This document shows positions 11,552 to 63,747 of a stretch of 64,000 nt of DNA, piece by piece. The notes beneath the pieces were generated by a model, which made no database searches, had not been told where the DNA came from, and was given only the letters and a program-made list of their open reading frames with translations. The translations under genes and the position numbers were made by a program. The stretch lies in assembly GCA_028583405.1 (NCBI GenBank), contig CM053260.1, forward strand, positions 11,616,660 through 11,680,659. The letters are read 5' to 3'. The DNA comes from Pogonophryne albipinna (lineage: Eukaryota > Chordata > Actinopteri > Perciformes > Artedidraconidae). The first letter of the stretch is position 1. Each line of letters begins with the position of its first letter.

Positions 11552-11554
11552 AGA

Positions 11555-12504: not shown

Positions 12505-12546
12505 CATTATTACATTGACTTACCTTTCAGAGAAGAGGAACCGGTC

Positions 12547-13491: not shown

Positions 13492-13506
13492 TGGGTTTAT
13501 TTAAGG

Positions 13507-34549: not shown

Positions 34550-37500
34550 TCAGCAACATCCTGAGGATTTTTTCTGCGGGGGCTCTTTGTGTAACACCAT
34601 GGCTTCCTCTCTCGTGTCATGCTTTTGACTCAACATCCTGTCAGCAACAACACAATCAGTTTCATGGAGGGCAATCAACATTAAAGGACATGTTTTTAAT
34701 ACAGGTGTGGTAAACGGGAAAGTGAAATGTGTTACCTGGCCACAGTTTCCAAACCCTGAACCACATTTTCCCCTGTGGCAGCGCTGCACTCCATGAATTC
34801 AAAGTTATATTCCTGTGAAAGCAATCCTGCTGTTTTAATGTGAATGTTTAATGATTAAAGCAACCACAGTATTTTATTTTTATCTGAGCTAAAAGTGTAT
34901 GAAGATGTAATGCCACAGATCCAAACCTTAGCAAGATTCTCCGCCTCCTGAATTTTAATCTGCCGCTCTGCACGATCACTCTTATTGCCCACAAGTAAAA
35001 TATTCACGTCCTCGTCAGCTCCTTCCTGCATAACAAAGATTGGATCTATTATTGTTTGGATTTCAATTAAACTCTTAAAAGTCTCTCTACAAACTACCAA
35101 TCTGACTTTTATTGCTATACATCCAATAAATAATCTTTACTAAACCAAGTTTTAACTAGTTTGCGCTCACATAAATAACTACATACTGATATGAAAACCA
35201 TTTTCAAATATCAATATTGGAAGACAAAGAATTGTTCATGCATATTTGACATTTTTCTAACATGGATGTCATCAACGTGGGTATTGTTTGTTGTTCCTGT
35301 AAGTATGTGCTGCTGTTTTAAATACAGAATCCACCATGTTTGTAATTTTCTAGTTTAAGACAACATTTAAGATTTTGAATTTATATAATATATAAGCGGA
35401 TAATGATTTAATTATAGACTGGGTATCAAATTTAAATTCTGTCATGCGGCTCTAGTAGTAGAGTAGTAGTTTTTCTTTCTTTTGATATTTGTTAAGGCAA
35501 CACATTCTGCCTTCAAGTGAGTGGCTTTAAAAAATACTTCACACTTTTATCAGTGTGAAGAAAAGTATCAGTGTGAAAAAAAGTATGCCTGGCCTTGAAT
35601 ACAAATGTAACGTTTCCACATCTGTAAAAAAGAAACATTATGAACAAAGCGAGTATTACAACATACCTGAATACAGTTTGCCCAGTAGCTAACTGCAGAA
35701 AAAGTCTCAGAGGAAGTGATGTCATACATCAACAGAAATGCGTGGGCTTTGTGGAAAATCTGCCTCGTGATGCTGTGAAACCTTTAAAATCAGAAAGCTT
35801 GTAATCAGACACAGACAACTTTTTAAATTAGGCCACTCAGAGCGAGAAACACCAATCTGTGACTGAACAGCCCTAAGGTGTTTGGGAGTGGGCCTCTGAC
35901 AGTTTAATGACACTTGTCAGTTGAGTTTTCAGAGACTTTCCTCAAAACATTCTGCACATTTTTATTTGAAAAACAGTGGTTGCACAACTACTACCTCAAT
36001 GAAACACACAATGCAAGTGTCAATCTCTTTCCCAGACAACCTTATCACAGTCACCATTAGTGTTTAGCTAATTCCTCCCAACTAAACACTGCGGAAATGT
36101 GTGAAACCAGTTCAGAAACAAGTTACAACCTGGCCTGAGGGAGACTTGTCGGGTTTTGCCTGTGGTAACTTAGATTTACAGTTTCCGTTCCTGCTCTACA
36201 ATAGCAAGTGCTCATCAAAAGTCTTGGCCTACAGCCAAGGTATCTGACAACACTTTCCAACATTTGGGCCGTCATAAACCACAAAATTATACTCTGCACC
36301 TTTGACAGTGATGCCTCCCTCTCAGATAATGATGTCTAGCTTTCCTAGCAAAGAGCAGATACAGTGCGTACCCGCAGCAGACATCTGGAGGAGCTCATAA
36401 AGTATGGTTTATACTCGCTGCAGTGTCCCCTCTCCTCGTGAGGGTGACAGAAGTAACATCATCACAAATTGTGCGTATCGTGTGAAGGCTCTACAATTTT
36501 CCGTATACCTAGGCATGACAAAAAAAGCCTACTGATAAAAGAAAATTACTTTCATTAAGAAAAAAAATGATGTATTCCTTTTTACTATTCTCCTGAGTCT
36601 ATTAAGAATAGTCTCAGGAGAATAGTAGAAATCAATAAAAACATGTTTTAATCGATAACCCATTCATTTCAATTGCTTGAGAAACATGTGGTCCTACACT
36701 TTTACATTTGAATACAAATGTCCAGTAAAATCGAAATATTTACAATATATTTAAACTTTTAAGCGTTATATATTATAAAACATGTATTGTTAAGGCGGAT
36801 GTAATTGACAGTGTACCTCATCATATGGTCATGGAAATTATAACTCCTCACAGACATCTCTCAGCTAGACCAGGGTCATCGTCATTAGACAAAATATGTT
36901 TGTCCAACAACAAACGTTATACTTCAAATGTATTCTTATGCATATTGCAAGTGAGTGTTCCCAGCCACGTCACGGTTTGTGACAAACACACTGAGTCCCT
37001 TGCTTCTTTTTGATCTCTTCTTCAAACTGCTATTTATGAAAGCTTGGAAATGCCAGCCAATAAATAGTTTTCTTTTTTTAGAGCAGCTTCAGAATGCAAC
37101 CACATCTACCTTAACAGGGAAAGACTGACGCACCTGTATAGGTATTATTAATGCTGGCTGTAGTTAGTGGTAACAATTCCACACCTCAATGATTTTCTTA
37201 TAGTAGATGTATTATTTATTATGAAACATGCATTCTTTGCGATTTAAAAGTGAGTGCATATTTATGATTACTTGGTACAAGTTCCTCAGAAATGTACTGT
37301 TAAGAAAAACATACCTTTCTTGTCCTGCTGTATCCCACAGCTGTAGCACCACGGGCTTTCCTTCCACTACCACAGTCCACATGCAGGAATCAAGACCTAC
37401 AAAATGTGTATATGTTACATTATTATGTATATTTACACACATTCATGTTATTAAAGTAGTGTGAAGATCAGATCTTACCAACTGAGGCGGGTAAATCTAA

Positions 37501-40500
37501 AGAAAACTTTCCACTCTGAGCTCTTTTCATGAAGGAGGTTTTTCCCACGCTGCTGTCTCCAACCATCATCACATTGTAAGCATTTGCTTTATGATCTGCT
37601 ATTCTGGAATTACCCTCTGAAAACAAAAACATTATTGGTCACACATTATATTTATTTATCTCCATATTAAACTTCCCTCTCTCATTATCTTTAGCAGCTG
37701 TGTGTAAGTATTAATGCTCTGTTCACCCAGAGAAAACTTCTGTTGGCTCAGCCCGACTTCAGCATAAAGATGTTGAACCGTCTTCTCACTGTTGAACAGA
37801 TAACAATAACGACTTTAAACAACACACAGAAAAAGATCAGCATACAAAAAGTTATTCACATTTTAAATGTTCAGACATCAGCATCCCCAAATGAATCATC
37901 ACATTGACTAATATTAGAAGTGGATACACTACAAGGATGTGGTCAAGGTTTCTTTCATTGTCATAGGAAACTATCTTGGATTGAAGGAATTTGAGCAAAA
38001 CATTAGGCAAATCACAAAAGAAACGCAAATAGCAGACATGTTAGAAGCAGTAGCAGACATGTTAAAAATGCATCCCTCCAGGATAAGCATACTTGAATAA
38101 TTGACAAGCCTAGAAAACCGACTTCTCAATTTACATGCCTACAACTGAACACACAATAATAACATTCCACCCTACATTATACTCCTGAGCCCTATCCTTG
38201 TGTCTGTCCTCCATTAGCTGGCTTTCAAAAAGTACATCTGTAACTTATGTGCTTGCTTTTCCTTTTATTCTTATTACTCCCTCCAGACTTCTGCCTGTTA
38301 TGAAGATAAATGCAAATCAACAATGTTGCCACTGTACTGATGACTCAAACCTGCTCGTATGGAGTTTGTGGCCTACTGCAGATTCTCTATGCATGAGGAT
38401 CAGTTTAGATGATTCAGAGGAAACACGACTTCAACAGTTCAATTTTAGGTTTCATTTTGAATTGATAACAGGATACTGATTATGTGTCTTTGTTCTGAAT
38501 GCTAACTGCTTACAATTCAACTCTATGGTCTCACAATGTTTTTACTGGGAAAGGAAAATGTTAGTGTAACAGAATTAAACTGATCTTGTTCAGTAACGTT
38601 TGGAAAACTCTTACAATGATATATTTTAGGTTATAGGTTAGGTTATACCACCCATGGTGGTGGCGGGGTTATGGTATGGGCAAGCGTATGTTATGGACGA
38701 CGAACACAGGCCACTCGATTCACAACATTACCCTAACCCTAACCCTACCCCTACCCCTCACACTAGATACTAACTGGTTTTCGGACCCCCCCAGACCCCC
38801 CCAATAAAGCAAAACTGCACGTTTCAGAGTGGCCTTTTATTGTGGGCAGCCTAAGGCACACCTGTGCAATAATCATGCTGTCTAATCAGCATCTTGATAT
38901 GCCACACCTGTGAGGTGGGATGGATTATCTCGGCAAAGGAGAAGTGCTCACTATCACAGAACTTTTCAGATTTGTGAACAATATTTGAGAGAAATGGTTA
39001 TTTTGTGTATATAGAAAATGTTTTAGATCTTTGAGTTCATCTCATGAAAAATGGGAGCAAAAACAAAAGTGTTGCGTTCATATTTTTGTTCAGTGTATCT
39101 CTGTTCCTCAGCGCCACTTACCTCACAGTCCTTGGGGCAATTTCTTCCTTTGAGATGCTGATGTTCGATGGTTTCTTCTCACTTTTACCTGCCTGCACAG
39201 ACAAAAGCATCCCAATCACAAGGTGACAGCAGGGCAGATTTTATTTTGAATGTCGATCTCATATTCAATATATGGCATTTTGATAATAAGTACATGTCAT
39301 GTTTTCTGTTTTGTTTCACAAAGACAAAAGAGAATCTTCATTTGTAATTATAATATCCGCTCATCCAAACGTTTTTGACAGGTTTTCGAGAAATAATCCT
39401 CTCGCTCACAGAAAGTGAAGCATGAAGTTTTACAGGATATTTTAAGAATGTGTGGAATTTATATTATTTGTCCAACAATGTAATGATACAAATAGGAGAA
39501 TTACATTTTATAGAAAGGAACAATAACAGGGCTTTTATATATATGCATTTTTCATAAATGTGACGTACAAGTAAGATCTTTTTTATGAGGCCTCTATATT
39601 GTTAGAAGTCAATAAAAAGCAACTAAATGCTTTATAGAGTACACCCCACCATTAAGATCAAGGCACATGATACAGCTTTATGTTCTCCTTTTCAGAATGT
39701 GAAACATGTCGTGTAGACCGCATGTTCCTCGTTTTATTTCACTGTGTGTGAAACAACATGACCAGTGTGCAAGAGGATTTATGCAAACATGAGTAACAGC
39801 ACGACATACAATAACTGTGCCAAATAACAAATGTCCATTAATTCACTTCAAGATAAAGGCCCAACGTAAAAAAATACATGATAATGCAATGTTTAGAAAG
39901 TACACTAAGGAACGGATGATAACTTGTAAACACTCAAAGCTAAAGATAAAAATGACTCTGCTGCTTACCTCTGATATTTGGACCAGGCTCAAAGATTCTT
40001 CTCTCAGCTCTTCAGGTGTATTGATGGCACTTCCATCTGTATTACTTCTGACATCTCTCTCATGTTGTGTATCTTGCATTTTGTCTCCACTTGCGGTTTG
40101 GTTTTCATATCTTTTGAGTCCATGTGACTTCCTGCTGGATCCCATTTTTCTTCTTCTCCCACCAGAAGCTGTTTCTGACATTAAATCTTCTTTTGGGGAA
40201 GTGGAAGGTATTGCAGCAAGAGAATTGGGAGTACGTTGATGTTCTGTTTCTATGAGTTGACCAGGAGGAACAGGATTATCTTCCAATGGCTGGTGAGCTT
40301 TAATGTGAGAGTCACCAATATGGCTGTACTCCACTGTTTCAAATATATTTTCTTTCCTTTGCTCAGAGCCCGTGTCTTTGTGTTTTAAGTTAAGCTGAAG
40401 CTCATCTTCTGTGATGTTGGAGAAAAGTTCAGTCTTTACATCTCCAACATTGGATGCAGTCTCTGTTGCTTCATCATCCACATCCTGTTCTTGATGCAAG

Positions 40501-43500
40501 TCTTCCCTTTTGTGTCTTGATCCAAAATTCCTGCGGGTTGAGCCCATCTTTTTCCTCCTGTTTGGACTTGGATTCTTCATCTCTATATTTGTATCGTGAA
40601 CTACTTCAGTGGGGTTGTCCAACTGTTGTTTACTAAACTGGGCACTGATATGTTGATGTTCTGCTCCTTCTCTTACCACATATGTCAATATTTCCAAATC
40701 TGCCACAACAGGCGCTTCGGCTGATTTCAAAGTTTGGTCCTCAATTATGCTTACACTTTCCTCATCATTTTGCATACTCTGTGTGATCTCACATAAAGAC
40801 ACAAATCTCTCTCCTATGATAACTGTGTTTCTATTCTCTTCAGTATTTTCAGACAGTAAAGGACTGGGGATTTGCCTCTCAGTGGTTGTAAAATCATCTA
40901 TCTGTGGTGGTTCCACACAAACATTTAAATTCCTCTCACTCTCCCTTTCATCAGCTACATGAACAAATATAGCAGGATTAACAACTTGCAAGTCAGAGCT
41001 TGGTATGTTTTGTCTGTTGTTGTGCACTGTGCTGGTTTCATTGGCTTCTTGTTCGTTATTCATAGGACTTTGTGATGCTTTTGCATGTTCACTCTGTGAT
41101 ACCTCTACAGTCATAAGCATAGGTAACTCTTCCAGTCCTTCTATCTTTTCAAGATGTCTCATGTCAGCTTCTGTTTTAAAGTCACTTTCTCTTTCATCAC
41201 TCTTTTCCTCTGGTTTCCTATTGAGTTGAGACCGGCGAGTAGAGCCCATCTTTCTCCTCTTCTGTTTCGATGTTCCCTGCACATTTTCACTGTTGTCTGA
41301 ATGAGATTCTTCTTGTTCCTTTAGATGGCTGGAAATGTCACTTTCCTCAAACATATCTGGCTCTGCTCTGAAGTTTTCCTTAAGACCTGTGTGAAATGGA
41401 GCCAAGCTGTCTGATACGTTCTTTTTAATCTTTTCTGAAATATTAATTTCTTGGGCTTTGTGTTCCGACTTCAAAGGATCCTCTGATTGTTCTCCATCTG
41501 CATCCTGGTTAGAAACTTGCATATACATTGAACTCTCCGGTCCTGATTTAAAGTATTTTACTGTGACATCGCCCACAGTTGGTGATGTATCATTTGTCTG
41601 TTGCACATTAATGTCTTTGTCAAAAGATAAAGCTTCAGAGCTTTGGAATTGAAAAGTCTCTTCTTGCTCAAGAACATCAAAACCAATTGGTCGTGAGGAG
41701 ACATTGTCACCATGATATGAGATAGTTTGTATGTCTGAATCAGCTTTCCAAACTGAGACTTCTGGTGGTTGCGAGTCTGTTTTAACTGTGTCACGTCCTC
41801 CAAGCTGGCATACATTTTCAGTCTCTTTTTTTTGTTTATTTTTTTCCTCATCAACATCTTTGACAAATACATCATTGCTAGGGCTTAAATGAATGTCTGT
41901 TTTCATAATTGCACTGTTGTCCTTCTCATTCTGTGACAACATGATGCCTTCCTCCAAGAAAATGTCTGTGTTTTCTTCGTCACTTACGTTTGAACTTAAG
42001 TCTAGGTCGGACTTCTTTTTTAATTCTTCCTGCTTTATTGTCTCTGTTACTAATGACATTCTTGTAGTGTCCTTGATGTGCAGTGGTCCTTTGTTTCTTC
42101 TGCTTGATCCAAATTTCCGTCTGTTCCCTGTGGGGTTTGTGGTGCATTCAGGTTCTGAGTTCTCTCTGAGGTCTTGTTCTTCTGTGGTTATCTCTGATGT
42201 GATAGAGGACTCATTCTTTTCTGTTGTTATCTGAGACTCACTCATCAAATAGTTGGTCTGTACATTTTCAGCATGCCTGAACATTTCTGTGACATTGTCC
42301 TTTTCCATGCTTTCTTTTTCTGTTACGGTACAAACATTTGGGAATTCTTCCTCTGGCATCTCCCCAACATTTGATTGGACATTTGTATTTTGATCTTCTG
42401 TTAAACGTGCATGTACATTTGAACCAGTAAGCTCAGAGATGCCAACAAGTGCATTTTCTTTAACAAGCTCACCAACATATTCAGTTGGAGCAGTGTCAAA
42501 TATTTCCATTCCCATCAACATGGTTTCCTTCGTTTGTTCCTGCACTACTGGTTCTACTGGTAATGACAATTCTGTTTCAAGAGATTTATTTCCCCTGGTG
42601 TTTCCAGAATCTTCCCCTGCAGGTTCATGGTACGATTCAGCAACAGAGTCCTTGACATGCTGTCTTCCTTTATTTCTACGGCTAGACCCCAGTTTTCTTC
42701 TCTTCCCAATGGGGTTAAAGTCAATGTTTTGTTGTGGTTGGGAGTCAGAAGTCACAGTTATTCCTGATTGCACAGCTTGTGAAGAGGATTCACCCTCCTC
42801 AATTTCAGAGAAAAGTCCTTCCTCATGACCCTTTGGTTCAGCACTGGGTTTCATATCATACTGTACTTGGCCTTCAATCTCCTTCACCTGACCTAGAGCA
42901 GAGTCTACTCCTTCAATGTAGCTGATCGGTGGTTCCTTGGTATCATAGAAATGATGATCCTCATTTTTCTGCTCTAAATCCTCAAAAATGCTTTCTTCAT
43001 TAAGATACTCTTCCTGCTTGTTGTCAGGAACTGACATTTTCTGACTGGTAGGAGAATCATCAGGTATTTTCACAACCATCTCAAATGGGTTTGTCTCTCT
43101 GATTTCAGCTTGGTCCATTGTGTTACCAGAAATTATTTGAGAATTTTCTGTGGCAGCGTGAATCGCATGGTCAGATGATAAATCTATTTGAGGTATTTCT
43201 TGAATTTCTGTTGGCTTACCCTCCTGTTCATGGAGTTTGTTCTCACCATCATCTGACCGATGAGCCCCTTTGACTTCAGATACATTGAACAACTCATGTG
43301 TTTCCTCATTTGTTGTAGACTCTTCTTTTGATGATGCAAATGCTTCTTCTTCAACACTGCATTCAGGTTCTGAGTTCTCTCTGAGGTCTTGTTCTTCTGT
43401 GGTTATCTCTGATGTGATAGAGGACTCATTATTTTCTGTTGTTATCTGAGACTCACTCATCAAATAGTTGGTCTGTACATTTTCAGCATGCCTGAACATT

Positions 43501-46500
43501 TCTGTGACATTGTCCTTTTCCATGCTTTCTTTTTCTGTTACGGTACAAACATTTGGGAATTCTTCCTCTGGCATCTCCCCAACATTTGATTGGACATTTG
43601 TCTTTTGATCTTCTCTTAAATGTGCATGTACATTTGAACCAGTAAGCTCAGAGATGCCAACAAGTGCATTTTCTTTAACAAGCTCACCAACATATTCAGT
43701 TGGAGCAGTGTCAAATATTTCCATTCCCATCAACATGGTTTCCTTCGTTTGTTCCTGCACTACTGGCTCTACTGGTAATGACAATTCTGTTTCAAGAGAT
43801 TTATTTTCCCTGGTGTTTCCAGAATCTTCCCCTGCAGGTTCATGGTACGATTCAGCAACAGAGTCCTTGACATGCTGTCTTCCTTTATTTCTACGGCTAG
43901 ACCCTAGTTTTCTTCTCTTCCCAATGGGGTTAAAGTCAATGTTTTGTTGTGGTTGGGAGTCAGAAGTCACAGTTATTCCTGATTGCACAGCTTGTGAAGA
44001 GGATTCACCCTCCTCAATTTCAGAGAAAAGTCCTTCCTCATGACCCTTTGGTTCAGCACTGGGTTTCATATCATACTGTACTTGGCCTTCAATCTCCTTC
44101 ACCTGACCTAGAGCAGAGTCTACTCCTTCAATGTAGCTGATCGGTGGTTCCTTGGTATCATAGAAATGATGATCCTCATTTTTCTGCTCTAAATCCTCAA
44201 AAATGCTTTCTTCATTAAGATACTCTTCCTGCTTGTTGTCAGGAACTGACATTTTCTGACTGGTAGGAGAATCATCAGGTATTTTCACAACAATCTCAAA
44301 TGGGTTTGTCTCTCTGATTTCAGCTTGGTCCATTGTGTTACCAGAAATTATTTGAGAATTTTCTGTGGCAGCGTGAATCGCATGGTCAGATGATAAATCT
44401 ATTTGAGGTATTTCTTGAATTTCTGTTGGCTTACCCTCCTGTTCATGGAGTTTGTTATCACCATCATCTGACCGATGAGCCCCTTTGACTTCAGATACAT
44501 TGAACAACTCATGTGTTTCCTCAATTGTTGCAGACTCCTCTTTTGATGATGCAAATGCTTCTTGTTCAACACTGCATTCAGGTTCTGAGTTCTCTCTGAG
44601 GTCTTGTTCTTCTGTGGTTATCTCTGATGTGATAGAGGACTCATTCTTTTCTGTTGTTATCTGAGACTCACTCATCAAATAGTTGGTCTGTACATTTTCA
44701 GCATGCCTGAACATTTCTGTGACATTGTCCTTTTCCATGCTTTCTTTTTCTGTTACGGTACAAACATTTGGGAATTCTTCCTCTGGCATCTCCCCAACAT
44801 TTGATTGGACATTTGTATTTTGATCTTCTGTTAAACGTGCATGTACATTTGAACCAGTAAGCTCAGAGATGCCAACAAGTGCATTTTCTTTAACAAGCTC
44901 ACCAACATATTCAGTTGGAGCAGTGTCAAATATTTCCATTCCCATCAACATGGTTTCCTTCGTTTGTTCCTGCACTACTGGCTCTACTGGTAATGACAAT
45001 TCTGTTTCAAGAGATTTATTTCCCCTGGTGTTTCCAGAATCTTCCCCTGCAGGTTCATGGTACGATTCAGCAACAGAGTCCTTGACATGCTGTCTTCCTT
45101 TATTTCTACGGCTAGACCCCAGTTTTCTTCTCTTCCCAATGGGGTTAAAGTCAATGTTTTGTTGTGGTTGGGAGTCAGAAGTCACAGTTATTCCTGATTG
45201 CACAGCTTGTGAAGAGGATTCACCCTCCTCAATTTCAGAGAAAAGTCCTTCCTCATGACCCTTTGGTTCAGCACTGGGTTTCATATCATACTGTACTTGG
45301 CCTTCAATCTCCTTCACCTGACCTAGAGCAGAGTCTACTCCTTCAATGTAGCTGATCGGTGGTTCCTTGGTATCATAGAAATGATGATCCTCATTTTTCT
45401 GCTCTAAATCCTCAAAAATGCTTTCTTCATTAAGATACTCTTCCTGCTTGTTGTCAGGAACTGACATTTTCTGACTGGTAGGAGAATCATCAGGTATTTT
45501 CACAACCATCTCAAATGGGTTTGTCTCTCTGATTTCAGCTTGGTCCATTGTGTTACCAGAAATTATTTGAGAATTTTCTGTGGCAGCGTGAATCGCATGG
45601 TCAGATGATAAATCTATTTGAGGTATTTCTTGAATTTCTGTTGGCTTACCCTCCTGTTCATGGAGTTTGTTATCACCATCATCTGACCGATGAGCCCCTT
45701 TGACTTCAGATACATTGAACAACTCATGTGTTTCCTCATTTGTTGTAGACTCTTCTTTTGATGATGCAAATGCTTCTTCTTCAACACTGCATTCAGGTTC
45801 TGAGTTCTCTCTGAGGTCTTGGTCTTCTGTGGTTATCTCTGATGTGATAGAGGACTCATTATTTTCTGTTGTTATCTGAGACACACTCATCAAATAGTTG
45901 GTCTGTACATTTTCAGCGTGCCTGAACATTTCTGTGACATTGTCCTTTTCCATGCTTTCTTTTTCTGTTACGGTACAAACATTTGGGAATTCTTCCTCTG
46001 GCATCTCCCCAACATTTGATTGGACATTTGTCTTTTGATCTTCTCTTAAATGTGCATGTACATTTGAACCAGTAAGCTCAGAGATGCCAACAAGTGCATT
46101 TTCTTTAACAAGCTCACCAACATATTCAGTTGGAGCAGTGTCAAATATTTCCATTCCCATCAACATGGTTTCCTTCGTTTGTTCCTGCACTACTGGCTCT
46201 ACTGGTAATGACAATTCTGTTTCAAGAGATTTATTTTCCCTGGTGTTTCCAGAATCTTCCCCTGCAGGTTCATGGTACGATTCAGCAACAGAGTCCTTGA
46301 CATGCTGTCTTCCTTTATTTCTACGGCTAGACCCTAGTTTTCTTCTCTTCCCAATGGGGTTAAAGTCAATGTTTTGTTGTGGTTGGGAGTCAGAAGTCAC
46401 AGTTATTCCTGATTGCACAGCTTGTGAAGAGGATTCACCCTCCTCAATTTCAGAGAAAAGTCCTTCCTCATGACCCTTTGGTTCAGCACTGGGTTTCATA

Positions 46501-49500
46501 TCATACTGTACTTGGCCTTCAATCTCCTTCACCTGACCTAGAGCAGAGTCTACTCCTTCAATGTAGCTGATCGGTGGTTCCTTGGTATCATAGAAATGAT
46601 GATCCTCATTTTTCTGCTCTAAATCCTCAAAAATGCTTTCTTCATTAAGATACTCTTCCTGCTTGTTGTCAGGAACTGACATTTTCTGACTGGTAGGAGA
46701 ATCATCAGGTATTTTCACAACAATCTCAAATGGGTTTGTCTCTCTGATTTCAGCTTGGTCCATTGTGTTACCAGAAATTATTTGAGAATTTTCTGTGGCA
46801 GCGTGAATCGCATGGTCAGATGATAAATCTATTTGAGGTATTTCTTGAATTTCTGTTGGCTTACCCTCCTGTTCATGGAGTTTGTTATCACCATCATCTG
46901 ACCGATGAGCCCCTTTGACTTCAGATACATTGAACAACTCATGTGTTTCCTCAATTGTTGCAGACTCCTCTTTTGATGATGCAAATGCTTCTTGTTCAAC
47001 ACTGCATTCAGGTTCTGAGTTCTCTCTGAGGTCTTGTTCTTCTGTGGTTATCTCTGATGTGATAGAGGACTCATTCTTTTCTGTTGTTATCTGAGACTCA
47101 CTCATCAAATAGTTGGTCTGTACATTTTCAGCATGCCTGAACATTTCTGTGACATTGTCCTTTTCCATGCTTTCTTTTTCTGTTACGGTACAAACATTTG
47201 GGAATTCTTCCTCTGGCATCTCCCCAACATTTGATTGGACATTTGTATTTTGATCTTCTGTTAAACGTGCATGTACATTTGAACCAGTAAGCTCAGAGAT
47301 GCCAACAAGTGCATTTTCTTTAACAAGCTCACCAACATATTCAGTTGGAGCAGTGTCAAATATTTCCATTCCCATCAACATGGTTTCCTTCGTTTGTTCC
47401 TGCACTACTGGCTCTACTGGTAATGACAATTCTGTTTCAAGAGATTTATTTCCCCTGGTGTTTCCAGAATCTTCCCCTGCAGGTTCATGGTACGATTCAG
47501 CAACAGAGTCCTTGACATGCTGTCTTCCTTTATTTCGACGGCTAGACCCCAGTTTTCTTCTCTTCCCAATGGGGTTAAAGTCAATGTTTTGTTGTGGTTG
47601 GGAGTCAGAAGTCACAGTTATTCCTGATTGCACAGCTTGTGAAGAGGATTCACCCTCCTCAATTTCAGAGAAAAGTCCTTCCTCATGACCCTTTGGTTCA
47701 GCACTGGGTTTCATATCATACTGTACTTGGCCTTCAATCTCCTTCACCTGACCTAGAGCAGAGTCTACTCCTTCAATGTAGCTGATCGGTGGTTCCTTGG
47801 TATCATAGAAATGATGATCCTCATTTTTCTGCTCTAAATCCTCAAAAATGCTTTCTTCATTAAGATACTCTTCCTGCTTGTTGTCAGGAACTGACATTTT
47901 CTGACTGGTAGGAGAATCATCAGGTATTTTCACAACCATCTCAAATGGGTTTGTCTCTCTGATTTCAGCTTGGTCCATTGTGTTACCAGAAATTATTTGA
48001 GAATTTTCTGTGGCAGCGTGAATCGCATGGTCAGATGATAAATCTATTTGAGGTATTTCTTGAATTTCTGTTGGCTTACCCTCCTGTTCATGGAGTTTAT
48101 CACCATCATCTGACCGATGAGCCCCTTTGACTTCAGATACATTGAACAACTCATGTGTTTCCTCAATTGTTGTAGACTCCTCTTTTGATGATGCAAATGC
48201 TTCTTCTTCAACACTGCATTCAGGTTCTGAGTTCTCTCTGAGGTCTTGTTCTTCTGTGGTTATCTCTGATGTGATAGAGGACTCATTATTTTCTGTTGTT
48301 ATCTGAGACTCACTCATCAAATAGTTGGTCTGTACATTTTCAGCGTGCCTGAACATTTCTGTGACATTGTCCTTTTCCATGCTTTCTTTTTCTGTTACGG
48401 TACAAACATTTGGGAATTCTTCCTCTGGCATCTCCCCAACATTTGATTGGACATTTGTCTTTTGATCTTCTGTTAAACGTGCATGTACATTTGAACCAGT
48501 AAGCTCAGAGATGCCAAAAAGTGCATTTTCTTTAACAAGCTCACCAACATATTCAGTTGGAGCAGTGTCAAATATTTCCATTCCCATCAACATGGTTTCC
48601 TTCGTTTGTTCCTGCACTACTGGTTCTACTGGTAATGACAATTCTGTTTCAAGAGATTTATTTCCCCTGGTGTTTCCAGAATCTTCCCCTGCAGGTTCAT
48701 GGTACGATTCAGCAACAGAGTCCTTGACATGCTGTCTTCCTTTATTTCTACGGCTAGACCCCAGTTTTCTTCTCTTCCCAATGGGGTTAAAGTCAATGTT
48801 TTGTTGTGGTTGGGAGTCAGAAGTCACAGTTATTCCTGATTGCACAGCTTGTGAAGAGGATTCACCCTCCTCAATTTCAGAGAAAAGTCCTTCCTCATGA
48901 CCCTTTGGTTCAGCACTGGGTTTCATATCATACTGTACTTGGCCTTCAATCTCCTTCACCTGACCTAGAGCAGAGTCTACTCCTTCAATGTAGCTGATCG
49001 GTGGTTCCTTGGTATCATAGAAATGATGATCCTCATTTTTCTGCTCTAAATCCTCAAAAATGCTTTCTTCATTAAGATACTCTTCCTGCTTGTTGTCAGG
49101 AACTGACATTTTCTGACTGGTAGGAGAATCATCAGGTATTTTCACAACCATCTCAAATGGATTTGTCTCTCTGATTTCAGCTTGGTCCATTGTGTTACCA
49201 GAAATTATTTGAGAATTTTCTGTGGCAGCGTGAATCGCATGGTCAGATGATAAATCTATTTGAGGTATTTCTTGAATTTCTGTTGGCTTACCCTCCTGTT
49301 CATGGAGTTTGTTATCACCATCATCTGACCGATGAGCCCCTTTGACTTCAGATACATTGAACAACTCATGTGTTTCCTCAATTGTTGTAGACTCCTCTTT
49401 TGATGATGCAAATGCTTCTTCTTCAACACTGCATTCAGGTTCTGAGTTCTCTCTGAGGTCTTGTTCTTCTGTGGTTATCTCTGATGTGATAGAGGACTCA

Positions 49501-51785
49501 TTATTTTCTGTTGTTATTTGAGACTCACTCATCAAATAGTTGGTCTGTACATTTTCAGCGTGCCTGAACATTTCTGTGACATTGTCCTTTTCCATGCTTT
49601 CTTTTTCTGTTACGGTACAAACATTTGGGAATTCTTCCTCTGGCATCTCCCCAACATTTGATTGGACATTTGTCTTTTGATCTTCTGTTAAACGTGCATG
49701 TACATTTGAACCAGTAAGCTCAGAGATGCCAAAAAGTGCATTTTCTTTAACAAGCTCACCAACATATTCAGTTGGAGCAGTGTCAAATATTTCAATTCCC
49801 ATCAACATGGTTTCCTTCGTTTGTTCCTGCACTACTGGCTCTACTGGTAATAACAATTCTGTTTCAAGAGATTTATTTTCCCTGGTGTTTCCAGAATCTT
49901 CCCCTGCAGGTTCATGGTACGATTCAGCAACAGAGTCCTTGACATGCTGTCTTCCTTTATTTCTACGGCTAGACCCCAGTTTTCTTCTCTTCCCAATGGG
50001 GTTAAAGTCAATGTTTTGTTGTGGTTGGGAGTCAGAAGTCACAGTTATTCCTGATTGCACAGCTTGTGAAGAGGATTCACCCTCCTCCATTTCAGAGAAA
50101 AGTCCTTCCTCATGACCCTTTGGTTCAGCACTGGGTTTCATATCATACTGTACTTGGCCTTCAATCTCCTTCACCTTACCTAGAGCAGAGTCTACTCCTT
50201 CAATGTCGCTGATCGGTGGTTCCTTGGTATCATAGAAATAATGATCCTCATTTTTCTGCTCTAAATCCTCAAAAATGCTTTCTTCATTAAGATACTCATC
50301 CTGCTTGTTGCCAGGAATTGAAATGTCCTGATAGGTAGGAGAATCATAAGTTATTTTCACAACATTCTCACATTGGTTTGTGTCTCTGATTTCATATGGG
50401 TCCATTGGGTTACAAAAAATTATTTCAGACTTTTCTGTGGCAGCATGAATCACACTGACAGATGTATTATCTTGTTGCGGCAGATCTTCAATTTCAGTTG
50501 GCTTTTGTTTCTGTTCATGCCGTTTGTTTACACCATCCTCTGATTGATGAGAACCTTTGACTTCAGGATTTGACATTTCCTGATTGATTGGAGAGTATCC
50601 ACTTCTTTTTACATTCAATTCTGATTGGTATGTGTCTCTGACTTCAGTTTGGTCCATCAGATTTTCAGAGTGAGTTTTAGGTGAGTGGTCAATTTTATGC
50701 ATTTTGGCTGGCTTAAAGTCCTGTTCATGCTGTTTGCTTGAGGCATCCTCTATTATATAAGCACATTTGCGTTCTGACAAACTGAAAGGTTCATTTTGTT
50801 CCTCATCTGTAAGCATTTCCTCTCTTGGTGATGACATTGTAGCTGGCTCATCATTGGACTCATTTTCAGTATTTTCTCTTCGAATAGTTTCTTCTGTGGT
50901 TATCTCGGGTGTGGTGGCAAATGGCAAAACTACTGACTCACTAACCAAATAATTGCCCTGTGAGTTTCCATCCTTCCTTAACAACTCTGTCTCATCATCT
51001 ATTTCTTTGCATTCTTTTTCTCTTTCAGTACACACATCAGGAAGCTTTTGTTCTGACATTTCCCTAACATTTGTGTGATCTACACTTGGAAGTGAAGCAA
51101 GACTTAACCTTGTTAACTCAGAGTTGCTTACACAGTGTGCACTTTCCTTGTCTTCCTCGCAGTAAAGAGTTTCAGATGTGTTGACTCTTTCCTCCATGGT
51201 TTGCACAAATGTAAAGGAGTCTGATACCATTTTAGAGTTTGTCACATTTTCATAAAGGCTTGTTTGCAGATTTTCGCTTTTGGGAATACCACTGTCCAGG
51301 TCAGCCTCTGGATAGTTTGTTATAGTAGCATTCTGAAGTTCAGGAAAATAATCATGTTCAGAAGCTGAATACAGATAACTCTCATGTGTTGCAGACATAT
51401 TGTCACTCTCTTGAATCAATACTTCCTGTGTGACATGTTGCATTGTAAGTGACATTTGTTTTGTTGCAATGGTTTCCTTAACTTCCTCTTTAGTTTCATG
51501 GCAAGATTCAGTTGCATATTCCCTTACATGGTGTCCTTTATTTTTGCGACTCGACCCCAGTTTCCTTCTGTTACCTGAAAATGCTGGTGGACTCTGAGTT
51601 TCATATAGTGAATTATCAGGTTCAGCTAATACTTTCAATGATTCAGTATTATCTACGGTCAAGTGGCGTTGATCTTCAGAGGTACTGTCCGTTACTTGGA
51701 ACTCATCAGCCTTAGTTTTTTCATTTTGGTTTGCTCCTCTGCGGCGTGAGCCAAGCCTTTTCTTCTTTGCGCTTTGAGCAGACAT
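34550..51785 (-). CDS. rab44: Giant Rab44-like GTPase with a tandem-repeat N-terminal region
   Basis: Nine coding exons on the minus strand: 51785-39969, 39192-39122, 37788-37727, 37616-37479, 37396-37315, 35781-35667, 35025-34927, 34812-34736 and 34637-34550. They join in frame for 4182 residues. The first exon alone encodes 3939 residues, acidic and low in hydrophobics, with about seven 405-residue repeats and a recurrent basic motif of RRKLGSSRR type. The last ~190 residues are a Rab GTPase: P-loop GDSSVGKTS, WDTAGQER, GNKSD, ECSAATG, and a C-terminal KKSSGCC for double geranylgeranylation. Large Rabs (RAB44, RASEF, CRACR2A) carry long N-terminal extensions and act in granule or lysosome-related traffic, mainly in immune cells for RAB44. 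No EF-hand is visible here. The identification rests on the Rab domain and the srsf3 neighbour. The start is the first ATG of the open exon; an upstream coding exon cannot be excluded. Confidence 0.88.
36583..36627. other. Near-perfect 21-bp stem hairpin in a rab44 intron
   Basis: TACTATTCTCCTGAGTCTATT pairs with the segment ending CTCAGGAGAATAGTA across a 3-base AAG loop, with one mismatch. The function is unknown; it is too short for a typical pre-microRNA. Confidence 0.7.
38640..39097 (+). mobile_element. Tc1-like transposon remnant in a rab44 intron
   Basis: A short transposase piece (HGGGGVMVWASVCYGRRTQ, about 38651-38712) is joined by a deletion to the element's 3' noncoding end. That end finishes TTTTTGTTCAGTGTA at a TA, as in a familiar fish Tc1 family whose ends read TACACTGAACAAAAA. 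The segment from about 38765 (ACTAGATACTAACTGGTTTT) to 39097 is close to the recalled consensus. The remnant ends about 24 bp from the splice donor of the exon at 39122-39192. Confidence 0.75.
42140..50310 (-). repeat. Tandem array of 1215-bp coding repeats in rab44 (about 6.7 copies)
   Basis: Corresponding points recur at 42439, 43654, 44869, 46084, 47299, 48511 and 49726. Spacing is 1215 bp (405 codons) except one interval of 1212, where one asparagine codon is lost. Copies differ at only a few codons each. Landmarks per unit are NPIGKRRKLGSSRRNKG, MLMGMEIFDTAPTEYVGELV, EMPEEEFPNVCTVTEKESM, SSDHAIHAATENSQII and EESIFEDLEQKNEDHHFYD. A clearly related but older, more divergent unit precedes the array at about 50310-51600. 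Confidence 0.97.
50311..51600 (-). repeat. Divergent founder-like unit of the rab44 repeat
   Basis: It encodes GNRRKLGSSRKNKG, MSEQKLPDVCTEREKE, HEQKQKPTEIEDLPQQD, VSVIHAATEKSEIIF and MDPYEIRDTNQ, in the same order as the array units but with many substitutions and spacing differences. It looks like the older copy from which the array expanded. Confidence 0.75.
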
Positions 51786-52331
51786 ACCTTCCTTTCTTCC
51801 CTCTTAAATCATGAAGCATTTAGACATGCAAATTGTCAGTATATCAACATATATACCCTTAAATATAAACAAGTTCATCAAAACGCATATTGATTTAGGA
51901 TCTTAACTACCATAATTCAAACAGCCAATTAGTTTATTTTAAACAGAAAATCTGCAGAAATACATTTTATTTGTTTATTTTGATCAATAACCTCAATCTA
52001 CTTCATTGTCATGACGCCACATGTACTCACCACCCAAATCTGGCACCTGTCGTCTCTCAACGCGAGCTGCTTTGTAAAGTCAAGTCATGAGTGTATGCTG
52101 CACAGTTAATATATTTCACTCGATGAGGGGGGGGGGGGGGGTGTTTCCTTCCTGTGTGGGTTGCACTTGCAGCATGCCATAAGGCAACGGAAACGGTATT
52201 TCCTGATCTGAATAAAGCTTATATTTTTTACATTTGCCAAATGTCATTTGATTATGGTACATAGTTAGTTTAATATAATACTTCCAAACAAAAAAAGGCA
52301 ACGGAGAAATAGGCTTCACCTTGGAAAACCA
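51786..52331 (-). promoter_or_regulatory. Gap between rab44 and srsf3, probable rab44 promoter and 5' UTR
   Basis: About 545 bp separate the rab44 ATG from the end of the srsf3 3' UTR. A run of ~14 G (about 52128-52141) is present. No other gene and no cdkn1a sequence are seen. Promoter elements cannot be fixed by eye. Confidence 0.4.
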
Positions 52332-52868: not shown

Positions 52869-55800
52869 TCATTTTCTGTCGTTAGACCTGGAACGACTGT
52901 AAAACAAACAAGTTAACAAAATGAGTCTCAAAAGTACAAAGTAATAAGTATAGTGATTTTTTTTTAACTTGCCTCCTTGACCGGGAGATTGATCTTGGGC
53001 CCTTCTTGTTGTCTCTGGACACAGAGCGCTGTCTGCCTCTATCTCTTGAAAGAGACCTGATGCAACAAAGCATAACAAAAATGAATATGATTATCATTGA
53101 TTATTAACTAAAGCAGAGTGTAAATAAAACTGTTGTTCCTCGCTTACCTGCTGCGACTGCGGCTCCTCCTCCTATAGTGTATGTGAAGTAAAAAATGAAG
53201 CAAAAAAACATTAGGGAAGAGATTTTTTCTAGTGAAACCTTTGGTATTCTTGATCCTTAGACACGGATTACACGTGGTTACACGTAGTTCCTTGTCTGTT
53301 AATAGAAGGATCATCTGCATCCATGAACTGCATCAAGATCAACTTGATAAAGAAGGAATCTTTGTCAAATGAGCACCAATAGGGGGGCCAGATTTCAGAA
53401 CAAAGCCAGGGCTCGACATTAAAGCTTTCCTTTGAAATAAACAAATAATATGTCACAATTTAACAATGGTCTGTCTGTTGCTACTGATTTGTGTTTCCAC
53501 CACACAGCTTGTGCACAATGACCTCCGAGGGTCCACACGGGACCTGAACAGAGACGGGTCATTTTCATTTTTAGTTTTAAAAAAACCCATTAAAAAAGTG
53601 TTTTTGTTTTTCTATTAAGACACACTAGGAGCGTGGATATTTTCATGGAAAAAAAGGGGGAACATTTACCTAAAAAAAGGTAGTGGTTTAATGTCGAGCC
53701 ATGAAAATGCCCTTGGTAGCCCAATTATATGGTGAACCTCTAATAACTGTAGTTAATATCGGCAAATATAAGTTAAAGACTGATGACAAAGTTCCTTGAC
53801 CACAACTTTTGATCTGTAGATTTTTGCAGCTCTGGACTGATCTTGCTCTAAGTTACATAACTGCTGAGAGCAAACGGTCAAGCACCTTTGAAAGTTAGAG
53901 TTAAGCATAAAAACTACAAAGAGCAGGATTAAAAGCAACTTACTATTTTGGGGGAATTGGACAAGATAGAAATGACGCAAGGAAGCCAGACTGATGGTGA
54001 GGGAAGTCGAATTGCAGAGAGGATTTGCCACATGATGCAAATGTTGGAGATATGAAGTTGCTTGGTGGCTGGTTGGAAGGGGTAGTTGTAGATTTTCCCT
54101 GCCTTTTTTGGGGGGGATGATGGGAAGGGATGTAAGCCATGGGCTGTTCCCGTTGATACAGTAGTTGTGTGGCAAATAGAGAGTAAAGATGCTGATTGGT
54201 TGATAATGTGAAGTGGGCCGCTGTCGATTGGATTAAGGTTGGAGGAAGAAGAGGAGGATGCTGGGAGCTGCATGCTCAGGAACCAATAGGTTGGTGGAAC
54301 CTGACGACTGGCGGTGCGCCTTGGTCATGTGACAACACCACCCAAGCTGATTGGGGCTCCCTGGTCAGCAGTCACATGATGCTGAAAGAAGACTAGTTGA
54401 CTGACTCAGATGGTGAGAAGCGTGGTGGTGACTCTGTAACGGGGTTCAGTTTTATTAATATATGGCAACTGAACTCAGAAAGAAAACAAAATGTAAACCT
54501 GCAAGAAAGTAATTCTAGAAAGTACCTATGAAAATGTTTGATGGAGTGCAAACTATGCCCCTTGAAGCAATATCACTCTGTTAGAGCTTGGTCTTTTACA
54601 AGACAACCCATTATTAGAGTTCATAAATAGTCAAGTGCTGACATAGGCTGCATTTGGAGTTGGATGTCAAACTAGGCAAAACTGGCAAAGATAAAAATAC
54701 TTTTGCAACAATTTCTTTTAAAAGCATCACTAGTGTAGATTTGTTTTTGAACACCTAAAAAGCAACATCAGTATGTTAAATCCTGAAGCAGGTCAATTCA
54801 CAGATTATCTATTTATGAACTCATTTTGTATATAAACTACATGATTTAAAGCACTAAGAGTGCTAACGATAACATTTAGGCCATTGTGACAAATGATCAG
54901 AAACTTACCCCTACTTGGTTTTGGCTTAAAAAGATTGACTACGCTTTAATTGGTCTATGATATAAAGATATGATTATTTGTCAGTGTGGGAGGTAAAAAT
55001 AATGGTTACAGTGTGTTGGGAATGTAAATATGCTTTTTCAGTTGTTTAAAAAATAAAACGCTGCAAATGAGACAGTAAATAAAAGAGTAAAGTGGTCCAA
55101 AAGAAAAACCATACCTGCGTCTGACTGGAGGACTACGTCGTCTAAAATCATCTCGAGGGCGTCTGCTACCGCCATGGGACGGAGGATGGCCACGGCTTCT
55201 TGAGCGCTTTTCCCCATTGGATAACTCGACACGCACTCGGCAGCCACACATAGTTCTAAAGAAAAAGTCATCACACGAGTGAGAAATTCTAACATGTAAT
55301 GCAAAAAGTACAACTGAAAACTGTGTTAAAGGATTTACCTTCCATCCAGTTCTTTCACAGCATCGGATGCATCTCTGGGGTCTTCAAACTCTACAAAAGC
55401 AAAGCCTGGGGGATTCCTGGCGACCCAAACACTTCTTAAAGGGCCATAGTACCCAAAGGAACTTTCCAACTCTGTCTTGTTTCCATTGTTTCCTAGATTC
55501 CCAACATAAACCTTGCAGTCAAGGGGAAACTGGTCACTTTGGCCTAAAAGAAAGGGCAAAACATAGGATGAGCGTTCAGACTTGTAAGAAGTATAGACAG
55601 TGAGTGTACCTCAGCTTTAATACAATTCCATAAACAATTAATTAATATTAACTCTTATTTTGGTGTCAAATACTTAATGCATATATATAGTGCAGACATA
55701 AATAAAACAAATACAAAAGCATTACGGTCCAGTAAATGCAAACTGTTAAGTTAAAATAATATAAAATTCAAATAAGAGTAAAGCTTTATCTGAGGGTGTT

Positions 55801-57030: not shown

Positions 57031-57283
57031 CTTAGATAACTGGAATTCTAACTGGACATTTTACATTTATATTTAATGTAATTATGCCATTCCTTGCACA
57101 CTTCATGTAAATGATATACTTTGAAATTGTGTTAGCTGTAATTTGGACCTTCGAAGTGTATATTTGTAGGATATTCTACAGATATGTATCTTTCACAGTT
57201 AACTTGTATACATTTTTACTTTTTAGTTCTGTTTGATTATATATCAAGTGTAACATACGGTGGCCCTGAAGTGCAAGACACCA

Positions 57284-57635
57284 CAGCATTTCAGAAAACA
57301 CTACAGCATTTCAGAAAACACCACAGCATTTCACAAAACGCCGCAGTATTTCAGAAAACGCCACAGCATTTCAGAAAACGCCATAGCATTTCAGAAAACA
57401 CAACAGCATTTCAGAAAACGCCACAGCATTTCACAAAACGCCACAGCATTTCAGAAAACACCACAGCATTTCACAAAACGCCACAGCATTTCAGAAAACA
57501 CCACAGCATTTCACAAAACACTACAGCATTTCAGAAAACGCCGCAGTATTTCACAAAACACTACAGTATTTCACAAAACGCCACAGCATTTCAGAAAACA
57601 CAACAGCATTTCAGAAAACACCACAGCATTTCACA
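57284..57635 (+). repeat. 20-bp minisatellite, left arm (~17 units)
   Basis: Units read CAGCATTTCAGAAAACACCA with G/C, C/T and A/G variants (AGAAAAC versus ACAAAAC, ACC versus GCC). The regular 20-bp period lacks stops and so creates long false open frames. Confidence 0.97.
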
Positions 57636-58392
57636 TTGGACGGAAAGGGTATTCCTTTAGGGCAGGCATCCTCAAAGTCCGGACTCAGGTCCGGGTCCGG
57701 ACCGAAACACAACTGTCTCCGGACTCTGAGCAAATTATACTTTTCATATATATTATCTGTATTATCTGTGTTATCTGCGAGACATCGACACAAAACAACG
57801 AGTCAAAATTCTCCGCTATGTCCACTGCAAACAGCGCTCTGCATGTCCGACTGTTCCACTGTCTGTGTGTGTCTGTCAACGCATTGGTCCAATCACATTC
57901 AGCATCCCGTTAGCGTTTTTTCCCACCACCAACAGCCTGCGAATCAGAGGCACAGTAGGGCGAGTCTTCGCGGAATGCCGGTGGGAAAAATGCGTGTGTC
58001 GTCTCTTTCAACCTGTCTGATTTAGAGCGAGAGTTTTTTTTTTTTTTAAAGTCAGAGCGAGAGTTAACAGCTCATCTAGTTGCATCTGTACTGTAGCTAG
58101 TAGCCTATAGTTTCACCTACCGGGGTGGCAACTGCCACCCTAAAAATAGGCCTTGCCATCCCAGCTGCCACCCCAGTTGGCAGCTTTGTTTTGAAAGAAA
58201 AGTTGTGGCTCATGGGACATTTATGAGAGAAAGTCTCTAATGTCCGAGTGCAAGTGAATGCAGCACAATACGCACGTCTTGTGCTGGTAACCCCTCCCCC
58301 GGCCCTGGCGCGAGCATGGAAATATGATTGACGTCGATTTCATTTGAACGGGACGGTGCAAAACGAGAAGCATTCGGACCCAAGCACTGAAG

Positions 58393-62082: not shown

Positions 62083-62980
62083 CTAACGTTGTAGCCTCTA
62101 TGGTTGTAGCCTAGCAGAGTGGACAAGTTGCTGTTAGCTGACAGTGAGGCATGTACGTGTCCATCAAAGTGACCACGCCCTAATTTATGCTAAAACTTTA
62201 AGACCTAATATAAATAAAAGGGTCGTGTTAGAAAACAATTCACTCACAGATTCATAATCATGAAGGTGGAATCTAACTATATCGATAATAATATTTGTTG
62301 CATCCATTGGTAGAAACATGTTTTTTTCTGCTGGAAAGTTGGGCATTTTAACATGGGGGTCTATGGAAATTGCTCCTTTCTGCAGCCAGTCCCTAGCGGC
62401 CCATGTATGAACTGCAGTGTGTGGCACTTCCATATTGACGTCCCGGCTGTTCCCCAGAGTTTGCCGCTTGGGTGAAACTCGAGCGATTAGAGCGATGCGA
62501 ATATTGGGTGGTCTACCATATTATTTACATGGAGATAAGCCCCTTAAAAACCATGAATTAATAAAGCATTAATTCTGTGTTTACTCCTGTCTTTCAAACA
62601 AGACGCTGGAGAGGGGGCGGGCCGTATCTCCATGTAAATCCTATCGGAATCGGATCGATCAGGCTAAACTAACCTGTAGCTGCTCCGTCCACACTCACAA
62701 CAACGTCATACAGACATAAATAAAGCAGCGACTGTATTCGAAATGACATAGACAGTCTGTGTTTTGTATATGTTTAACTTTTGTCCAGTTTCTGAACAGA
62801 TATGAGGAGCTGTGAGCTCTGAGTGTGTGCTAACAGCTAATGGCTGATGTGTTGGGCCAATCACGCAGCGTCATTTCTTGACTGGCAGCAAAAACAACCA
62901 ATCACAGCAGTGCTTCTATGGCTGGCTCTGTCCAATCACAAACAAGAAGTGTTCTCCCTAAGGAATACCCTTTCCGTCCA
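62083..62980. other. Right-hand interior of the inverted-repeat element
   Basis: Noncoding. It contains the partner of the left arm (about 62575-62965) and an extra inverted copy of the ACATGGAGATA block (62528-62540). No gene is recognised. Confidence 0.5.
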
Positions 62981-62983
62981 ATG

Positions 62984-63717: not shown

Positions 63718-63747
63718 GTCTTGCACTTCAGGGCCACCGTAGTAACA

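What the first reader, a model, noticed from the sequence alone, without database searches (positions are those of the whole stretch)
42140..50310. Giant rab44 exon built from ~7 near-identical 405-residue repeats
Seen directly: one uninterrupted 11.8 kb coding exon in which a 1215-bp unit recurs with exact multiples of three and only a handful of codon differences per copy. The one length change removes a whole codon. Family knowledge: Rab44-type proteins have long N-terminal extensions, but I know of no description of a 400-residue, nearly perfect tandem array in a Rab. Inference: recent expansion or ongoing homogenisation of a protein-coding macrosatellite, probably variable in copy number between individuals, giving Rab44 proteins of very different size.
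Basis: partly seen in the sequence, partly recalled or inferred. Interest (0 to 1): 0.88.

Follow-up and report, generated by a model that had tools for sequence, protein, structure and literature searches.

The report
Fish Rab44 with giant repeated arm
An Antarctic-type fish carries a cell-transport switch protein, Rab44, whose floppy arm has grown to nearly 4,000 residues by copying a 405-residue block about seven times; related fish have done the same with blocks of other lengths that nearly always carry the same short conserved motif.

Summary
On the minus strand one 11,817-bp coding exon of an intact Rab gene model (4,182 aa, ending SGCC) holds 6.7 copies of a 1,215-bp unit. Copies differ by 1-15 bases, with one whole-codon deletion; a two-unit block recurs. 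The gene is Rab44 by descent: next to SRSF3, outside the CRACR2A clade, 95% identical to Trematomus bernacchii rab44 outside the array. The habit is widespread: 53 of 74 long fish Rab44 records hold at least 400 residues of near-identical repeats, with dominant periods from 236 to 484 aa or multi-unit blocks.
Where it is single-copy it is as conserved as the GTPase domain, inside a fast-evolving, predicted-disordered arm. No EF-hand, a defining part of large Rabs, was found. I infer a multivalent, phosphorylation-switchable tether on granule or melanosome membranes; this function is not shown. Copy-number polymorphism is plausible (some same-species records differ by whole units) but untested in individuals.

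The parts
39969..51785 (-). Giant coding exon of rab44 (ATG at 51785, GT donor after 39969), 3,939 codons
   Evidence: same N-terminus as T. bernacchii rab44
49995..50300 (-). Left partial copy (102 codons) with an abrupt edge: no silent and 5 amino-acid-changing differences from c2 here, dS 0.67 just upstream
48780..49994 (-). Repeat unit c1, 405 codons
47568..48779 (-). Repeat unit c2, 404 codons (one codon deleted)
46353..47567 (-). Repeat unit c3 (1 difference from c5)
45138..46352 (-). Repeat unit c4 (4 differences from c6)
43923..45137 (-). Repeat unit c5
42708..43922 (-). Repeat unit c6
42144..42707 (-). Right partial unit c7 (188 codons; 1 difference from c5 over the 186 codons compared)
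50301..51575 (-). Older, degenerate copy of the unit upstream of the array (dN 0.40, dS 0.67 to c2 over 290 aligned codons)
51741..51767 (-). N-terminal motif KKKRLGSRR, in the place where other bony vertebrates have it
40128..42122 (-). Unique region after the array with four diverged motif copies (starting at 42122, 41261, 40559, 40157)
39122..39192 (-). rab44 exon 3
37727..37788 (-). rab44 exon 4
37479..37616 (-). rab44 exon 5, P-loop GDSSVGKTS
37315..37396 (-). rab44 exon 6, WDTAGQ
35667..35781 (-). rab44 exon 7
34927..35025 (-). rab44 exon 8, NKSD
34736..34812 (-). rab44 exon 9, CSAATG
34550..34637 (-). rab44 exon 10, C-terminal SGCC and stop
52872..55610 (-). SRSF3 gene just upstream of rab44 (synteny marker); outer limits approximate
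   Evidence: RRM matches SRSF3 at 1.1e-35 and SRSF7 at 1.4e-27; RS-rich exons seen by eye

Best explanation
This is the Rab44 gene of a notothenioid-type fish. Its first coding exon encodes an acidic arm of about 3,900 residues, predicted disordered, in front of an intact Rab domain with a prenylatable end. The arm descends from a short N-terminal segment carrying one basic motif, [RK][RK]K[LM]GS[ST]R[RK]. In ray-finned fish, segments with the motif were duplicated; in many lineages a long motif-bearing block was then amplified in tandem and kept uniform, most simply by unequal exchange and conversion (supported by comparison). No EF-hand is left. Most likely function (inferred): the C-terminal lipids hold Rab44 on granule or melanosome membrane while the arm presents 13 identical or similar basic sites that each bind a cytoskeletal or membrane partner weakly. 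Phosphorylation of the Ser/Thr in each site would switch the attachment, so unit number sets reach and avidity.
For: Intact gene model and Rab domain; outside the CRACR2A clade (100/99). In 49 fish proteins that I chose, the two single-copy motifs are the top of 282 windows in the last 292 residues before the GTPase (0.885 mean identity, rest 0.578, GTPase 0.868). Over 972 motif sites (related records and units, so not independent), positions the search pattern left free stay basic: +2 R 97%, +3 R/K 92%, -5 R/K 97%. One N-terminal copy in Latimeria, two turtles, Xenopus and other frogs; none in the 8 CRACR2A-clade rows. 53 of 74 long homologous records have near-identical arrays; all 59 arrays at 80% identity overlap at least two motifs. 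207 of 268 units are closer to a unit of their own protein than to any of another genus. Arm disordered by composition and in a model of a close relative. Mouse Rab44 acts in dynein-linked melanosome transport (PMC9586991, abstract and passages).
Against: No binding or expression data. Motifs are not enriched in arrays over the rest of the protein (54% of motifs in 56% of the length), so arrays may grow for unrelated reasons. 12 of 74 long records have almost no repeats, 101 of 119 shorter ones show none or little (a set capped near 1,620 aa by the search), and Chelmon's array mostly lacks the motif. dN/dS between the older copy and c2 is 0.60: weak overall constraint. The unrooted tree does not join fish Rab44 to tetrapod Rab44 specifically. 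The p150Glued-binding middle region of mouse Rab44 was not identified here (not searched by sequence).
Confidence: 0.65

Rival explanations
1. Selectively near-neutral arm: a disordered spacer tolerates in-frame tandem duplication, so unit number drifts by unequal exchange; only the few diverged motif copies near the N-terminus and before the GTPase matter.
For: dN/dS 0.60 for the older copy, and 15 amino-acid-changing against 7 silent codons among young copies; motifs not enriched in arrays; 12 of 74 long records and 101 of 119 shorter ones have little or no array.
Against: An 11.8-kb frame stays open; arrays arose with different unit lengths in many lineages, and all 59 overlap at least two motifs; all 7 young copies here keep the motif unchanged.
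Confidence: 0.4
2. Microtubule-binding, tau-like arm: the motif is a KXGS site that binds microtubules and is released by MARK kinases.
For: K at -3, G at -1, S, and a hydrophilic residue at -5 match the MAP site described in PMC6890249 (abstract and passages); Rab44 acts on microtubule transport in mice.
Against: That paper states that all KXGS sites of tau and MAP2/4 have Asn at +3; here +3 is R/K in 92% and Asn stands at +4 in 40% of sites. A profile of ten motif peptides found no PDB chain at E up to 10 (low power, and three rows had guessed flanks).
Confidence: 0.15
3. Assembly artefact: a single unit multiplied by the assembler.
For: Tandem repeats are reported to cause assembly errors (PMC6868369, listing and abstract start only).
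Against: 22 variable sites separate the units; comparable arrays in other species' assemblies, 8 copies in T. bernacchii. No reads were available.
Confidence: 0.04

Closest known systems
Mammalian Rab44 (large Rab GTPase)
   Same: C-terminal Rab domain with a cysteine end for prenylation; N-terminal RK[LI]GS[ST]R motif in the frog, turtle and coelacanth Rab44s seen here (the human one is recalled, no mammal was returned)
   Different: Mouse Rab44 is 924 or 725 aa with coiled coil, proline-rich region and, in the long form, an EF-hand (PMC8303950, sections 2 and 3); here no EF-hand found, an arm of about 3,900 aa and 13 motif copies
Trematomus bernacchii 'uncharacterized protein rab44' (P0002)
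   Same: 95% identical outside the array, same N- and C-termini, 8 motif-anchored copies
   Different: Spacings of 393-404 aa, not 405; closest 100-residue stretches between the species about 90% identical
Homogenised coding tandem repeats such as filaggrin or mucins (recalled)
   Same: Long in-frame units kept alike within one exon
   Different: No relation; there the repeats are the product itself, here they extend the arm of a switch GTPase
tau/MAP2/MAP4 KXGS microtubule-binding repeats
   Same: K-x-G-S core with a hydrophilic residue at -5
   Different: Asn at +3 absent, no sequence match found

Membership tests
Rab44 | C-terminal Rab GTPase domain with P-loop, WDTAGQ, NKxD | tested here: met
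   Pfam Ras E=4.5e-47; best PDB chain Rab26 2.3e-37, then RASEF
Rab44 | C-terminal cysteines for prenylation | tested here: met
   ends SGCC, stop; lipidation itself not tested
Rab44 | Lies outside the CRACR2A/Rab46 clade | tested here: met
   8-row clade 100/99 excludes it; six of the eight rows are named EFCAB4B (CRACR2A by recalled synonymy), two are unnamed; RASEF was not in the tree
Rab44 | Groups with tetrapod Rab44 to the exclusion of CRACR2A | tested here: inconclusive
   No outgroup. If rooted on CRACR2A, ray-finned Rab44s form one clade and lobe-finned/tetrapod ones stay unresolved; the midpoint drawing puts tetrapod Rab44 beside CRACR2A
Rab44 | N-terminal RK[LMI]GS[ST]R motif as in tetrapod Rab44 | tested here: met
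   KKKRLGSRR at residue 7 of the model; +1 is R, not S/T, in this copy
Rab44 | Neighbourhood with SRSF3 (human arrangement recalled) | tested here: met
   SRSF3 lies directly upstream on the same strand
Large Rab GTPase (published domain definition) | N-terminal EF-hand | tested here: not met
   none in the giant exon at E up to 1 (exons 3 and 4, 44 codons, not scanned); present above cut-off in Polyodon, Megalops, Latimeria, below it in Xenopus and Scleropages
Large Rab GTPase (published domain definition) | Coiled coil before the Rab domain | tested here: inconclusive
   no helix in the 900 low-confidence residues before the GTPase of the P. georgianus protein, 96% identical to the window's; the array part was not modelled
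MAP KXGS repeat | KXGS with Asn at +3 and mostly a hydrophobic +4 | tested here: not met
   +3 is R/K in 92% of 972 sites
Rab44 | Granule/lysosome/melanosome function | not testable with these tools
   no expression or cell data for this species

The most novel reading that the evidence does not exclude
Fish Rab44 has become a Rab GTPase and multivalent scaffold in one chain: a membrane-anchored disordered arm, over a micrometre in contour length, whose number of phospho-switchable KxGS sites is tuned, and polymorphic, by unequal exchange inside one exon. It would bind the cytoskeleton or an opposing membrane directly, in place of the calcium-gated EF-hand (and perhaps the dynein-binding coil) of other large Rabs.
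Probability: 0.22. Interest if true: 0.86.

Novelty: new variant of a known kind. Interest (0 to 1): 0.64.

Why it matters
Rabs are normally about 200 residues (general knowledge), and the mouse and human large Rabs whose lengths PMC8303950 gives are 395 to 924 residues. A vertebrate Rab of some 2,200-6,800 residues (range), whose length changes by whole blocks between related species, is an unusual natural experiment on tether length and valency in organelle transport. It also offers a specific handle: a basic motif kept from coelacanth to percomorphs, present once in the tetrapod Rab44s that have it here and up to 20 times in fish. I did not search the literature for the motif itself. If unit number varies among individuals, fish granulocytes or melanophores could test length and dose effects directly.

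Tried and rejected
TRF could not see a 1,215-bp period. Self-BLASTP of homologues gave no off-diagonal pieces and was replaced by a lag scan. Pfam hits TrbM and UBP8-like ubiquitin in the giant exon have no stretch passing on its own and were treated as composition artefacts. T. bernacchii isoform X7, 790 aa shorter than X3, is on the same contig and may be a false intron between identical units; the Channa pair is also one contig; neither was counted as polymorphism. Window = Pseudochaenichthys georgianus was rejected: 1,049 of 1,090 aligned residues identical. The PDB profile search with the motif gave nothing. The third homologue search, aimed at tetrapod N-termini, returned 4 proteins (the query itself, a second Latimeria record and two turtles), no mammal, so the human N-terminal motif is recalled. 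Of 310 proteins in the GTPase search only the best 120 were listed and surveyed. Some Rab44-side records show no motif: a bird, one turtle, Huso, the lungfish (RRLGASRR, one residue off) and frogs Nanorana and Hyla; several start late and may be incomplete. Paper searches: rab44 alone, 153 papers, 30 listed; with zebrafish, 15; tandem repeat, 3; teleost, 3; intrinsically disordered, 0; positive selection, fish and repeat, 3. No listed title or abstract start describes the array; most texts were not read. The icefish search listed 15 of 495 papers, none holding rab44. The search of the window's own assembly did not complete, so whether the unit occurs elsewhere in the genome is unknown.

Full report
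OBSERVATION. The minus strand of 39843-51803 is one open frame of 3,986 codons. A lag scan gives 1,215 bp as the dominant period and the repeat finder gives seven copies with spacings 1215,1215,1215,1215,1212,1215. Anchored on the peptide GKRRKLGSSRR, there are six full units and two partials, spanning 50300 to about 42144. Full units differ at 1 to 15 of 1,215 bases; there are 22 variable sites over all copies, 15 changing an amino acid and 7 silent (my count's table), and one whole-codon deletion.

GENE. Aligning to the T. bernacchii protein gave exons 51785-39969, 39192-39122, 37788-37727, 37616-37479, 37396-37315, 35781-35667, 35025-34927, 34812-34736 and 34637-34550, with GT/AG at each intron between them and one final stop: 4,182 residues. 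The GTPase is Ras-family by Pfam (4.5e-47) and nearest to Rab26 and RASEF among PDB chains. SRSF3 lies upstream on the same strand, a choline-transporter (SLC5A7) gene downstream on the other. Outside the array the protein is 95% identical to T. bernacchii rab44 (448/470 and 920/965 aligned residues; GTPase 184/188) and 96% (1,049/1,090) to the annotated part of P. georgianus rab44, so the window comes from a notothenioid-type fish, probably another species.

FAMILY. In a 41-row GTPase tree without outgroup, eight CRACR2A-type rows form a clade at 100/99 that excludes the window and all other rows. The teleost Rab44s form a 23-row clade at 100/99 with the window beside P. georgianus and T. bernacchii. 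Tetrapod, lungfish and coelacanth Rab44s share an unresolved 16-row group with CRACR2A, so the tree alone does not prove that fish and tetrapod Rab44 are orthologous; with CRACR2A taken as outgroup it is compatible. The N-terminal motif and SRSF3 carry that argument.

AGE AND MECHANISM OF THE ARRAY. Units c3 and c5 differ by 1 base and c4 and c6 by 4, while neighbours c3 and c4 differ by 15: a two-unit block of 2,430 bp was most likely duplicated. Eleven of 91 pairs of informative sites show all four combinations, which calls for exchange between units or repeated mutation. The left edge is abrupt: 102 codons with no silent and 5 amino-acid-changing differences from c2 sit beside 290 aligned codons with dS 0.67 and dN 0.40. 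The latter are an older copy of the same unit, so the array was re-amplified from one that already existed. Pairwise dN/dS among young copies scatters from 0 to 1.3 on few changes and proves nothing by itself.

COMPARISON. A search with the repeat region returned 74 records at E 0.01 or better, all fish where a name was given, many called 'uncharacterized protein rab44'; some species have several records. By lag scan, 53 of 74 have at least 400 residues in repeats of 95% identity or more, 59 of 74 at 80%, and 12 have almost none. The dominant period differs by lineage: 236 or 279 aa in cichlids, 324 Mastacembelus, 403 Cebidichthys, 482 Thunnus, 484 Takifugu, and blocks of alternating unit lengths of 718 in Acanthopagrus schlegelii, 727 in Trachinotus and Echeneis, about 616 in Nothobranchius and 483 in Pelmatolapia. 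Eighteen of 119 shorter records also show internal repeats, e.g. 78 aa in Umbra, 137 in Dallia and 136 in the paddlefish Polyodon. In 33 proteins, chosen mostly because they have arrays, 207 of 268 motif-anchored 100-residue stretches are closer to another unit of the same protein than to any unit of another genus (sum is mine). For the window this is 7 of 8, with median best identity 1.00 inside and 0.90 to Trematomus. Exceptions include the unique last motif of many proteins and close relatives (Maylandia 2 of 10, Astatotilapia 4 of 14). This is concerted evolution repeated in many lineages.

COPY NUMBER WITHIN SPECIES. Of eight record pairs compared, four are same-species pairs not known to be from one contig: N. 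furzeri differs by 615 aa, Acanthochromis by 362, Maylandia by 236, Pelmatolapia by a 204-aa gain and a 204-aa loss. I picked them because their spacings differed. Two pairs are one contig each (Channa, T. bernacchii) and two are between species. Assembly or prediction differences are not excluded.

THE MOTIF. Each unit starts with GKRRKLGSSRRNKG, and the full protein has 13 relatives of it. In an alignment of the last 480 residues of 49 fish proteins, where copies are single and orthologous, the two motifs are the top windows of 282 before the GTPase: mean identity 0.885, against 0.578 elsewhere there and 0.868 in the GTPase. Across 972 sites (not independent) the pattern is [RK][RK]K[ML]GS[ST]R[RK], with +2 R 97% and +3 R/K 92% although the search pattern did not ask for them. 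Coelacanth, two turtles, Xenopus and other frogs carry it once near the N-terminus (residues 7-11 in most; 47 in Pseudophryne and 76 in Pelodiscus, whose records start earlier); Polyodon has it there and four more times before its EF-hands; the eight CRACR2A-clade rows have none. The lungfish reads RRLGASRR, one residue off, and a few Rab44-side records have no motif (bird, one turtle, Huso, Nanorana, Hyla). Among the 74 long records 51 have the motif within the first 30 residues. So an ancient single N-terminal element appears to have been multiplied in ray-finned fish.

WHAT WAS LOST. EF-hands pass Pfam's cut-off in Polyodon, Megalops and Latimeria; Xenopus and Scleropages show only traces below it; Clupea, Garra and the window's giant exon show none. 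AlphaFold of the P. georgianus protein with 36 aligned sequences gives a folded Rab domain and only low-confidence coil before it (mean pLDDT 42.8). Charge and hydropathy of the unit are those of a disordered chain. By the published definition of large Rabs (EF-hand, coiled coil, Rab; PMC8303950, sections 2 and 3 read) this protein is therefore not a canonical member, though it is Rab44 by descent.

FUNCTION (INFERRED). Mouse Rab44 sits on melanosomes by its lipidated Rab domain, binds dynein-dynactin by its middle region and needs its N-terminal region for regulated transport; the authors note that fish melanophores depend on such transport, tuned by kinases including PKA (PMC9586991, abstract and passages). 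Zebrafish rab44 is reported in neutrophil subsets, immature ones in one study (PMC11505477, PMC10948150, passages). The conserved feature left in this arm is the basic Ser-containing motif. Its context K-x-G-S-[ST]-R would suit basophilic kinases (PKC/PKA type, from general knowledge), and resembles the KXGS site of tau and MAP2/4 in K-3, G-1, S and -5, but not in the Asn at +3 which PMC6890249 reports for all those sites. I commit to a multivalent, phosphorylation-switchable tether as most likely, with a near-neutral growing spacer as the serious rival.

NOVELTY. Automatic annotation already names these proteins, and coding arrays under concerted evolution are a known phenomenon. No listed title or abstract start in the searches describes the array or EF-hand loss in fish Rab44; these cover open-licence PMC papers only, most texts were not read, and the motif itself was not searched for.

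Noticed in passing
window 9528-13574 (+): ORFs of an LTR retrotransposon, BEL/Pao-like by appearance (DUF1759 below cut-off; aspartyl protease domain).
   Followed up: partly
window 25711-26562 (+): 284-codon ORF that looks like a tyrosine recombinase of a DIRS-type element (recalled resemblance; no relevant Pfam hit).
   Followed up: partly
window 28990-33577 (+): High-affinity choline transporter (SLC5A7) exons (PDB match 2.4e-34 for the last ORF), transcribed towards rab44.
   Followed up: partly
window 711-1028 (+): Exon with a TruB C-terminal match below cut-off, likely a TRUB pseudouridine synthase.
   Followed up: partly
window 57142-58022 (+) and 62902-63841 (-): Two stretches of a short repeat open in several frames (peptides like ISENTTAFQKTQQHFRKH), probably related minisatellites.
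   Followed up: no
window 37483-37485 (-), end of rab44 exon 5: Ser at the switch-I Thr position (SVG for TIG/TVG of other Rab44s); the column is Ser in all 49 proteins. Possible effect on effector binding or Mg2+ coordination.
   Followed up: partly
P0076, P0079, P0110 (Rotaria): Bdelloid rotifer proteins with two to four WDTAGQ GTPase domains in one chain turned up in the Rab search.
   Followed up: no
P0189 (Latimeria Rab44): Its own internal repeat with a 98-aa period although the KxGS motif is single.
   Followed up: no
P0077 (P. georgianus rab44): The annotated protein begins inside the last repeat unit, so arrays of this kind may truncate gene models.
   Followed up: partly
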